From NCBI GenBank assembly GCA_002197995.1, contig NGZR01000006.1, positions 1,426,001-1,490,000 of the forward strand: DNA of 64,000 bases, written 5' to 3'. Shown piece after piece: positions 29,838 through 59,360 of this stretch. The DNA comes from Gaeumannomyces sp. JS-464 (Eukaryota; Ascomycota; Sordariomycetes; Magnaporthales; Magnaporthaceae). The stretch's first letter is position 1. Every line of letters begins with the position of its first letter. The notes below the pieces were generated by a model, which saw only the letters and a list, made by a program, of their open reading frames with translations, did no database searches and was not told the DNA's origin. Both the position numbers and the translations under genes were made by a program.

Positions 29838-30337
29838 CTGGCACGCTAGTGATTAATGGAGGCAGGGTCTCGAAAGGGGAAGCCCTGCAACCAGAAATCG
29901 AGGACCCATATGCGACACACAGAGAACTTGGGGTTTCATAGTCATGCTAGCCTGAACAATGCAGTATATACGAACAGAAAAAAACTTGAGCACAAACTGG
30001 TGAGCGCGCATTTCCAAATGGAATCACATTAGCATTTTCACGGAAATGGATGGCAGGAGCAAGCCACCTACTTACGTGCACATATGCGGCGTGATACTTG
30101 CGTACCGTGTGTTGGCAAGAGTGAAATTGATTAGCCTTTGCCGGTTAGAAACCGTTCTTTAGCCGGCTCGTCCACACTGGTTATAAAACAGGAACCCGCG
30201 AATGATCGGCCGAGCTTAAACTCCGTAGAGAACTCCATACAACGATCAAGTGCTTGCAGATCCTCCAATAAAAACCTGAATGTTGTGGTGAAAAAGTTAG
30301 GCACTAGAAAAGGCCACCTTCCGATGAGTCCCTCATC
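29838..30337. other. Transition into AT-rich DNA
   Basis: No gene seen. Composition drops towards the AT-rich tandem array that follows. Confidence 0.35.
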
Positions 30338-31582
30338 TTAGTAGGCGTCATCGCCGGCGCCCTTTTTAATAGGGAATTAGCATTTTTATTTTGAAACATG
30401 GAGTTGGAAATGCACGTACCTTCTTCTGGAAATGCGTAAGCAGCGAGGTTACCGGCTAATACCGAAAACCCAAAAGGGAAAACACTTACATCAATGCTAT
30501 AATGTGAGTTAGTATTACTGTTACCGGCTAATACTTAAACTGTGACCAAGGGAAAGCGCTTACATGCTACAAAGGTGTTAGTAAAACGGCTATTAGCTAT
30601 TACTAAAGTATAAAAAGGGGAAAACTTACTTTTTGTGTAAAGGGTTAATATAGCCACGGCCAGCCAGCATTGAAATTTAACAAGTAAAAAAGCCAGCTAG
30701 TATTAAAATTTTAAAGAGATAAAAGCTGGCATCCTAAAAAAGCGTTAGTATAACGTTAGCTAGTTAAAACTTAAATATTTAAAAAGGGAAAACTTACAAT
30801 TTGAAAAGCTGGTTAATAGTGCTATAACTGGGACTATTTATTTTATATAAAAGAACACTTGCTAAAATGGAGTTGGCATTGTAATTAGCATTTAATGTTT
30901 AAAATCCAAAGGAGGGAAAAAACGCACCGTTTGTAAAATGGGTAAGTATAACCGCAGTTAAAAGTATTTAAATTTTTAAACGTAAAAACTTACGAATTAC
31001 AAGATAGGTTGGAATTGTAATAATTAAGCAACATTTAAACTTAACATGAAAAGTCTTTTTTAAAAAGCATTTACCGGCTGTAAAAATTATTAATAAAATT
31101 GTTGCCGGTTAATGTTTAAACGGGCTTAAAAACACTTCCAGCTTGAAAAGCACGTTAGCGATATCGCAGCAAGTTAAAATTTAACACTTGAAAAGGGAAA
31201 CACGTATTTCCTGTAAAACGAGTTAAATTACTATTATCAGCTGGTGATAAAAACCTGGAAAGGAGGGCACTTACACCTCATAGAAGTATTAGCGTTAACA
31301 ACCACGACTAACATACGAAATATAAAGGGGAACACTTACCGACTGGAAAAGGGGTTGGTCTTAAAGTTATTATGCAATTTTAAAGGTTTAAAAGGAAAAA
31401 AACTTACAGCTTATAAAGTGCGTCAGCGTTACAGCTACGAAACACTACCAAAGATAATACCCAAAGTTTCAGAAAGGGAACACTTACATGCGCGCCCAGA
31501 GCGTGGCTTCCCTGGGTCATAACATGGGGGCATCAAGTACCAAAGCGGCCAAAGCCATCGACAGTGCAACAGAAAGCTTCAT
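30338..31582 (-). CDS. Candidate secreted micro-exon gene (speculative)
   Basis: On the minus strand an ATG at 31582, in a favourable context, opens a signal-peptide-like sequence (MKLSVALSMALAALVLDAP). The first exon would end at 31488, directly before a GTAAGT. Beyond it lie about 16 intron-like units with donors ending at 31487, 31407, 31339, 31274, 31074, 30993, 30927, 30797, 30629, 30563, 30489 and 30419 plus several decayed ones. The sequence between acceptor and next donor is usually 3 nt (for example TCG 31342-31340, CCG 31077-31075, CAT 30566-30564). A possible terminal exon from 30361 reads GAGDDAY and stops at 30340-30338. Exon 1 has an in-frame TGA after 21 codons, possibly a RIP change. 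It could equally be a dead gene or an intron-derived satellite. No homolog is known to me. Confidence 0.25.
30362..31490 (-). repeat. Diverged ~67-bp tandem array of intron-like units
   Basis: About 16 AT-rich units, spaced 64-81 bp (one gap of about 100). Read on the minus strand a typical unit is GTAAGTGTTTTCCC, an AT-rich middle, a CTAAC-like motif and a TTTNCAG or TAG, then about 3 nt before the next GTAAGT. Twelve of the 16 positions keep a GT donor. Units 30629-30567, 30563-30497 and 31407-31343 have all three splice signals; others have lost single bases, several as acceptor G-to-A. Confidence 0.75.

Positions 31583-59326: not shown

Positions 59327-59360
<34 letters not shown>

What the first reader, a model, noticed from the sequence alone, without database searches (positions are those of the whole stretch)
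30338..31582. Tandem array of ~16 intron-like units, mostly one codon apart, behind a signal-peptide exon
Seen: on the minus strand GTAAGT-type donors recur every 64-81 bp; many are preceded by a CTAAC-like motif and a CAG/TAG, with typically 3 nt between acceptor and next donor (TCG, CCG, ACG, CAT and others). Several failed acceptors differ only by G-to-A. An ATG-led signal-peptide-like exon (31582-31488) abuts the first donor, and a short exon ending GAGDDAY-stop (30361-30338) follows the last. Known: fungal introns are this size; introner-like elements multiply introns but usually not in tandem. Inference: either a secreted protein assembled from one-codon micro-exons, or an intron plus 3 nt that expanded as a satellite and is spliced out whole. 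I know of no described fungal gene of this form.
Basis: partly seen in the sequence, partly recalled or inferred. Interest (0 to 1): 0.88.

Follow-up and report, generated by a model that had tools for sequence, protein, structure and literature searches.

The report
Intron string with one-codon spacers
In a filamentous fungus, the single intron of a small secreted-peptide gene seems to have been copied in tandem into about 16 intron-like units set one codon apart, now decayed, and an unrelated gene in the same genome carries a cleaner string of seven introns spaced the same way, which suggests that fungal genes can be strung together from one-codon exons.

Summary
On the minus strand 31487-30362 holds 16 homologous intron-like units: 8 GTAAGT against 0.7 expected; acceptor-like to donor-like spacing is 3 nt in 7 of the 11 pairs found at 0-12 nt. 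Two paralogs in the genome (C12; C31 near 1.1677 Mb) have ONE intron at that site, so the array replaces a single phase-0 intron. The array alone is RIP-like and decayed: 12 of 16 units keep GT, 9 of 16 an AG in place, and exon 1 has an in-frame stop at codon 22. This copy is probably a pseudogene, so 'a secreted protein made of micro-exons' is not supported today.
The idea behind it is. An unrelated kinase-HET gene on C1 shows seven consecutive introns with six one-codon phase-0 exons (V-Y-G-P-L-S); 0 of 2000 random sequences came near its chain, and 3 of 39 anchored homologs have Y-G at the same spacing. An aspartate aminotransferase gene has a one-codon exon too. No RNA evidence. I read this as tandem intron amplification with a one-codon spacer: a new variant of known intron gain.

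The parts
31488..31582 (-). Exon 1: ATG and signal-peptide-like start, MKLSVALSMALAALVLDAP, then TGA at codon 22 in the ATG frame; the downstream half reads in another frame (CPHVMTQGSHALGAH) and resembles both paralogs there
   Evidence: paralogs; DNA match to L003 71% and L009 69%
30362..31487 (-). Array of 16 intron-like units (whole)
   Evidence: GC 0.33, RIP-like indices 1.64/0.75; only match found in the genome is itself
31408..31487 (-). unit 1 (GTAAGT; AG shifted, slot TAA|GCT)
31340..31407 (-). unit 2 (GTAAGT ... CAG|TCG), live both ends
31275..31339 (-). unit 3 (GTAAGT ... TGA|GGT or GAG|GT)
31208..31274 (-). unit 4 (GTAAGT ... CAG|GAA), next donor lost
31140..31207 (-). unit 5 (donor lost, ATACGT; acceptor slot CAA|GCT)
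31075..31139 (-). unit 6 (donor lost, GGAAGT; CAG|CCG)
30994..31074 (-). unit 7 (GTAAAT; acceptor slot TAA|TTC)
30928..30993 (-). unit 8 (GTAAGT; acceptor slot CAA|ACG)
30861..30927 (-). unit 9 (GTGCGT ... TAG, next donor degraded)
30798..30860 (-). unit 10 (donor degraded, weak GTGTTC; acceptor slot CAA|ATT)
30733..30797 (-). unit 11 (GTAAGT ... TAG, no donor after it)
30630..30732 (-). unit 12 (donor lost, 103 nt, acceptor slot CAA|AAA)
30564..30629 (-). unit 13 (GTAAGT ... TAG|CAT), live both ends
30490..30563 (-). unit 14 (GTAAGC ... TAG|CATTGAT, 7-nt spacer)
30420..30489 (-). unit 15 (GTAAGT ... CAG|AAGAAG, 6-nt spacer; AAGAAG is also the start of exon 2 in paralog L009)
30362..30419 (-). 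unit 16 (GTACGT ... AAAAAG); its last 6 nt AAAAAG read KK in frame with GAGDDAY
30338..30361 (-). C-terminal exon GAGDDAY-stop; paralogs have KKDAVDDDGY-stop (L009) and KRDVNDNGYQ (C12)
30160..30275 (-). Downstream block conserved in all three paralogs, probably 3' UTR, with a possible hairpin

Best explanation
The array is the single phase-0 intron of a small secreted-peptide gene, amplified in tandem about sixteenfold with a unit of 'intron plus one codon'. Shown: paralogs with one intron at the same place; homologous units; register of 3 nt; RIP-like composition in the array and not its flanks; loss of acceptors and donors; stop in exon 1. Inferred: the first duplications kept an acceptor, one codon and the next donor together, so that every added copy was removed by ordinary intron-definition splicing and cost only one in-frame codon; because length stayed a multiple of three the expansion was nearly neutral; once the copies were many, repeat-directed mutation (RIP) struck the array and the gene decayed. 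The C1 kinase-HET gene shows the same arrangement in an unrelated, apparently working gene, which argues that one-codon exon strings are spliced in this fungus.
For: Paralog L009: one 61-nt intron between ..KVNAR and KKDAVDDDGY*; paralog L003 on C12: one intron at the same place, whose core scores 5.3 against the units (shuffled -1.2, sd 0.7), as high as unit against unit. Unit homology and register. With the units re-cut in the middle, donor columns keep 0.95-1.50 bits and the branch A is 15 of 15 (the single best column); the three spacer columns are the lowest run of three, mean 0.05. RIP-like indices 1.64/0.75 in the array against 0.82/1.16 and 0.76/1.28 in the flanks and 0.94/1.18 in the C1 array; transitions 0.53 of differences against 0.32 expected. 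C1 array: longest chain 6 with 3-nt spacing, 0 of 2000 random sequences above 2; all phase 0, six spacers without stop; 76 of the 120 homologs listed carry kinase and HET domains in one protein; Y-G at the same distance from the W anchor in 3 of 39 anchored homologs and Y at -8/-9 in 13 of 39. One-codon exon in aspartate aminotransferase.
Against: No RNA was available. The window array itself fails a strict chain test. Conservation is not confined to splice signals: a mid-unit T column also has 1.50 bits and single non-spacer columns are as low as -0.11. CpA preference of C/T differences appears on the array's own strand only; the matching TpG preference does not appear, so RIP is likely but not proven. 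Genome-wide there is no large excess of one-codon junctions: 10 against 8 in the reversed control, 11 against 5, 9 against 13, and among the 27 loci saved from these no chain above 2 other than the C1 array. The L009 intron is only weakly like the units (core -2.8 against -5.8, sd 0.7). The C1 introns are only weakly like one another (-1.9 against -4.9, sd 0.8), so tandem duplication is not shown there. Intron-like composition alone raises such scores: unrelated C1 introns against window units gave -5.0 against -6.6, sd 0.28. 36 of 39 anchored homologs lack Y-G at the exact place.
Confidence: 0.62

Rival explanations
1. Intron-born satellite that was always spliced out whole: first donor (31487) to last acceptor (30362), about 1.1 kb, in frame; the inner splice signals are passengers copied along with the unit.
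For: Exon 1's second half ends in the same phase in which GAGDDAY begins, so joining first donor to last AG stays in frame. Many inner signals are dead, yet the end donor survives. Strict chains are short.
Against: Donor and branch columns are better conserved than most of the unit and the spacer is the lowest run of three columns, which a passive satellite would not be expected to give, although mutation bias and alignment could contribute. The paralogs' introns are 61 and 67 nt. The C1 array with diverse introns and 3-nt spacers is not an obvious satellite.
Confidence: 0.22
2. A working micro-exon secreted protein: the array is spliced exon by exon today and the one-codon exons give a variable linker between signal peptide and the acidic C-terminus.
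For: Promoter-like upstream sequence and good start context (judged by eye); C-terminal exon conserved and stop kept; spacer columns hold almost no information, as a hypervariable linker would.
Against: TGA at codon 22; 7 of 16 units without AG in place and 4 of 16 without GT; RIP-like decay. A base error in the assembly at exon 1 cannot be excluded.
Confidence: 0.08
3. Stepwise gain by insertion (introner-like elements) with a 3-nt target duplication each time.
For: The exact 3-nt spacing in two unrelated arrays.
Against: The array's DNA matched nothing else in 53 Mb and the C1 array likewise only itself, though both searches skip common words; introner families have many scattered copies (recalled; PMC4457414 seen only in the listing).
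Confidence: 0.05
4. Chance: AT-rich, RIP-mutated DNA that happens to look intron-like.
For: GC 0.33 and RIP-like indices; by the strict chain test the array is not far from random (13 of 1000).
Against: 8 GTAAGT against 0.7 expected, 0 of 5000; 7 register pairs against 0.3, 0 of 5000; paralogs carry an intron there.
Confidence: 0.03

Closest known systems
Cryptococcus neoformans CNN00420: introns gained by expansion of an intron-containing DNA repeat (PMC2395259; abstract and passages seen)
   Same: New introns arise as copies of neighbouring introns in the same gene by repeat expansion; fungal.
   Different: Two gained introns, identical to three others in the gene, in a repetitive region; I saw nothing about one-codon exons in the passages. 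Here the unit is an intron plus about one codon, 16 units, diverged and RIP-like.
[quoted passage not shown] abstract and passages seen)
   Same: Tandem duplication supplies the splice sites; the source copy is identifiable; in fission yeast several repeat copies lie in one gene.
   Different: There one intron spans several repeat copies, or one intron is gained; no string of introns with one-codon exons in the passages seen.
Single-nucleotide exon of Fusarium CYP621A (PMC12940212; abstract and passages) and the 20-nt Xlr2 microexon of Trichoderma (PMC11121469; abstract and passages)
   Same: Ultra-short exons in filamentous fungi; [quoted passage not shown]
   Different: Isolated micro-exons supported by RNA; here six in a row on C1 and a longer decayed string in the window, without RNA support.
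Stwintrons, spliceosomal twin introns of Hypoxylaceae (PMC9024468 passages; PMC8469720 listing)
   Same: Complex fungal introns removed by consecutive splicing.
   Different: Stwintrons nest one intron in the splice signal of another; here introns lie side by side with whole codons between.
SNORD115/116 host gene SNHG14, 48 tandem and 29 consecutive introns (PMC11608373; listing with start of abstract)
   Same: Long tandem arrays of repeated introns.
   Different: Each intron there carries a snoRNA-like RNA in a mammalian host gene; no Rfam family matched in this window, and the spacers here are about one codon.
Schistosome micro-exon genes (recalled; PMC5825161 only in the listing)
   Same: Secreted proteins built from many tiny in-frame exons.
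   Different: Their micro-exons are mostly longer than one codon (recalled); no homology tested.

Membership tests
GT-AG spliceosomal introns (window units) | GT donor, branch motif, AG acceptor in each unit | tested here: inconclusive
   GT in 12 of 16 units, AG in place in 9 of 16, a very loose branch-like motif in 16 of 16; strict chains only 2 long
GT-AG spliceosomal introns (window units) | removed from RNA | not testable with these tools
   no transcript data at hand
GT-AG spliceosomal introns (C1 array) | consecutive donor-branch-acceptor sets in one phase joining two parts of a known fusion protein | tested here: met
   the automatic chain holds 6 of the 7, the first intron's donor GTACAG lies outside its donor pattern
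GT-AG spliceosomal introns (C1 array) | removed from RNA | not testable with these tools
   no transcript data at hand
Constitutive micro-exon (C1 array) | encoded residues conserved in homologous proteins | tested here: inconclusive
   Y-G at exact spacing in 3 of 39 anchored homologs (of 120 listed), Y at -8/-9 in 13 of 39; most others have different linkers
Constitutive micro-exon (aspartate aminotransferase, C1:3258050) | one-codon exon needed for a conserved motif | tested here: met
   GAT exon supplies D of GPPD; the peptide joined by hand matches solved aspartate aminotransferases; no RNA
Intron gain by tandem duplication | units homologous to each other | tested here: met
Intron gain by tandem duplication | paralog or orthologue with a single intron at the site | tested here: met
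   L003 and L009
Introner-like element | near-identical copies at unlinked places of the genome | tested here: not met
   array DNA hit only itself (search skips very common words)
Stwintron | one intron interrupts the donor, branch or acceptor of another | tested here: not met
   spacing is 3 nt between complete units, not nested
RIP-mutated repeat | high TpA/ApT, low (CpA+TpG)/(ApC+GpT) in the repeat and not its flanks | tested here: met
RIP-mutated repeat | C-to-T in CpA context on both strands | tested here: inconclusive
   CpA preference seen on one strand only
Dikaritin-type RiPP precursor | UstYa-family gene nearby | tested here: not met
   0 of 10 PF11807 matches on C31

The most novel reading that the evidence does not exclude
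This fungal lineage builds 'intron ladders': strings of short phase-0 introns with exactly one codon between them, in unrelated genes, by a process that duplicates or inserts intron plus codon; the strings are spliced step by step and give linkers made of single-codon exons, which annotation pipelines break. The window array would be the one with most rungs, caught after RIP; the C1 kinase-HET gene a living case, perhaps shared with Gaeumannomyces, whose annotation splits the gene just there.
Probability: 0.35. Interest if true: 0.86.

Novelty: new variant of a known kind. Interest (0 to 1): 0.72.

Why it matters
How spliceosomal introns are gained is an old open question with few caught events. 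Here the source intron (paralogs), the product (array) and its later decay are all visible in one genome. The C1 gene makes a direct test possible: can a spliceosome ligate six consecutive one-codon exons? If so, exon-size limits and gene annotation in fungi need revision; kinase-HET and small secreted proteins are classes where such genes would be missed.

Tried and rejected
Dikaritin/RiPP precursor: no UstYa match on C31 among 10. Homologs of the small secreted protein: none at E<=1 among 20 candidates, none at E<=10 among 42 for a two-sequence alignment. Known RNA families in the window: none at gathering scores. Other arrays in the genome: one search gave 154 matches against 4 in the control, but odd GT/AC-rich small contigs fill its list and only the first part was listed, so I do not use its total. 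Searches gave 10, 11 and 9 places. My first chain scan and printout read one strand only and so missed minus-strand loci; one search repeated the scan on both strands of all 27 saved loci (L045-L071): chain 6 in L047/L056 (the C1 array), chain 2 in L045, L046, L050-L052, L055 and L062, otherwise 1 or 0. L045 and L050-L052 are GTAAGT microsatellites; L055 and L062 were not looked into; by eye only L046 and L047/L056 are convincing one-codon exons. Literature: searches (2 of 2 listed; 20 of 35,693; 13 of 13; 15 of 123; 8 of 8; 8 of 8; 15 of 459; 15 of 19) listed no paper whose title or abstract start describes strings of one-codon exons or intron-plus-codon arrays; the lists are capped and subscription journals are mostly missing from that library.

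Full report
What is there. The window is G000:C31:1426001-1490000 of a 53.0-Mb genome in 34 contigs. HET, ankyrin, Rogdi, subtilase, carbonic anhydrase and proteasome-type genes lie in the window, and the nearest named relative of a gene elsewhere in this genome is Gaeumannomyces hyphopodioides (59% identity over half and 75% over a third of the query), so I take the organism to be a Magnaporthaceae-like ascomycete (inference). On the minus strand 31582-30338 there is an ATG with a signal-peptide-like start, then 16 intron-like units (31487-30362), then GAGDDAY-stop. Eight GTAAGT stand there on the minus strand and one on the plus; random sequences of the same first-order composition gave 0.68 on average and never 8 in 5000. 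Acceptor-like YAR and donor-like GTAMRY lie exactly 3 nt apart in 7 cases, with single cases at 6, 7, 11 and 12 nt among spacings 0-12.

The units are copies of one another. Pair scores of unit cores without their ends are 3.6 on average, shuffled cores -1.5 (sd 0.39). Cutting the array in mid-unit and re-aligning 15 pieces, so that the splice sites are not alignment ends, the donor columns keep 0.95-1.50 bits, the branch A is invariant in 15 of 15 and is the best column, and the three spacer columns (-0.03, 0.07, 0.11) are the lowest run of three among 66 columns. One mid-unit T column also has 1.50 bits, and a few single columns outside the spacer are as low, so the pattern is a tendency. 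Intron-likeness alone raises pair scores, but less: seven unrelated introns from C1 against the window units gave -5.0 against -6.6 shuffled.

The array took the place of one intron. Searching the genome with exon 1 and with the 3' part found two further members. L009 (C31:1167667, + strand) is intact: a 61-aa exon 1 ending ..KVNAR, one 61-nt intron, then KKDAVDDDGY-stop. L003 (C12:2622683, +) has a 51-aa exon 1, one intron in the same phase and KRDVNDNGYQ after it, though no AG stands just before KR. Its intron core scores 5.3 against the window units (shuffled -1.2, sd 0.7), as high as the units among themselves; the L009 intron scores less. In the window AAA AAG precede GAGDDAY, so KKGAGDDAY-stop lines up with KKDAVDDDGY-stop. 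A block downstream is conserved in all three. Two of two paralogs found thus carry one intron where the window carries sixteen units.

The array has decayed. 12 of 16 units begin with GT and 9 of 16 have AG in the acceptor slot; in u7, u8, u10 and u12 the slot reads AA. RIP indices are 1.64 and 0.75 inside the array, 0.82/1.16 and 0.76/1.28 in the two flanks, 0.71/1.22 for the window, and 0.94/1.18 for the C1 intron array, so introns as such do not explain it. Transitions make up 0.53 of pairwise differences against 0.32 expected; C/T differences prefer CpA on the array's strand, but the mirror preference for TpG is absent. Exon 1 has TGA at codon 22 in the ATG frame; its second half reads on in another frame in which, by eye, it resembles both paralogs. 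A sequencing error cannot be excluded, but with the lost splice sites the simplest reading is a pseudogene. A strict chain scan finds only two-unit chains in the array, a length that 13 of 1000 random sequences reach: taken alone, the window array would not prove splicing.

The same arrangement elsewhere, in better health. A scan for GTAAGT..YAG-NNN-GTAAGT pointed to C1:3478793. There, in L042 2223-2831, seven introns of 68-103 nt follow each other with GTT, TAT, GGA, CCG, CTT and TCT between them, each intron with donor, branch-like motif and AG, all phase 0, joining a kinase frame (..KVPGNPNPT) to a HET frame (LDTNWKFEIDNQF..). The chain scan, whose donor pattern leaves out the first intron, reaches 6 at a spacing of 3 nt, at most 2 at any other spacing 0-15, and at most 2 in 2000 random sequences. 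In a search of 5.8 billion proteins (7993 candidates scored, 120 of 128 hits listed), 76 of the 120 carry kinase and HET domains in one protein; in G. hyphopodioides the two halves are annotated as two neighbouring genes, RB595_005222 and _005223, the first ending ..GNPNQTVVS where our array starts and the second starting at an inner Met. Of the 120 proteins 39 contain the anchor W-x(3-5)-[DN][NDS]-x-F before a CxxC; three (P0006, P0018, P0029) have Y-G exactly where the one-codon exons put Y and G, P0004 has Y-G two residues further out, and 13 of 39 have Y at -8 or -9. Most others have different linkers, P0003 among them, so this supports rather than proves the micro-exons. The C1 introns show only weak likeness to one another (-1.9 against -4.9, sd 0.8), so their origin is open.

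One-codon exons are probably spliced in this genome. The match at C1:3258050 lies in an aspartate aminotransferase gene..VPQGPP | GAT | GCCATTCTGG | ITEAFKADTF (joined by hand). Joined, it aligns with solved mitochondrial aspartate aminotransferases over 25 residues (E 5e-6); without the GAT exon the D of GPPD would be missing. Such junctions are rare, however: CTAAC..AG-NNN-GTAAGT gives 10 places against 8 for the reversed pattern, CTRAY..YAG-NNN-GTAAGT 11 against 5, with GTATGT 9 against 13; among the 27 loci saved from these, scanned on both strands, no chain above 2 turned up besides the C1 array.

Mechanism. I think most likely that a duplication with one end just before an AG and the other just behind the next GT created 'acceptor-codon-donor' between two copies; every further copy added one intron and one codon and was nearly neutral. 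Unit 15, whose acceptor is followed by AAGAAG as in exon 2 of L009, may mark such a joint (inference). When copies were many, repeat-directed mutation made the array AT-rich and killed splice sites. Whether inner introns were removed one by one or the string as a whole cannot be told without RNA; both keep the frame. The higher conservation of donor and branch columns over the spacers leans to the former.

What is known. Intron gain by repeat expansion is described in Cryptococcus (PMC2395259, abstract and passages) and by tandem duplication in vertebrates, fission yeast and potato (PMC4974935, abstract and passages). [quoted passage not shown] Stwintrons are nested (PMC9024468, passages). Tandem introns of another sort are known in the mammalian SNORD115/116 host gene (PMC11608373, listing). 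Eight literature searches (some lists capped) listed no string of one-codon exons. I therefore call this a new variant of a known kind: tandem intron amplification with a one-codon spacer.

Noticed in passing
L042:2223-2831 (G000:C1:3478722-3479330, +): Seven consecutive introns with six one-codon exons joining a kinase and a HET domain; G. hyphopodioides annotation splits the gene there.
   Followed up: yes
L046 around 1441-1616 (G000:C1:3258050, +): Aspartate aminotransferase gene with a one-codon exon (GAT) followed by a 10-nt exon (GCCATTCTGG).
   Followed up: partly
window 30160-30275 (-), L003 2490-2605, L009 2990-3085: Downstream block conserved in all three paralogs (85% over about 53 nt between L009 and the others); folds to a long hairpin in L009 (z -1.98), 1 of 30 consensus pairs with a two-sided change.
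   Followed up: partly
G000 contigs C3-C8 (for example L043): Contigs (C3 is 87.8 kb) of odd GT/AC-rich low-complexity sequence dominate the pattern search; some stretches recur on two contigs; possibly assembly artefact.
   Followed up: no
L055 and L062 (minus strand): Two-intron chains with a 3-nt spacer in the both-strand scan; not looked into.
   Followed up: no
L003 2700-5001: RIP-like AT-rich stretch (indices 1.39/0.64) next to the C12 paralog.
   Followed up: no
L009 3500-3700: Open stretch resembling a retroelement integrase just downstream of the intact paralog (judged by eye).
   Followed up: no
window 59328-59360: Run of 33 G.
   Followed up: no
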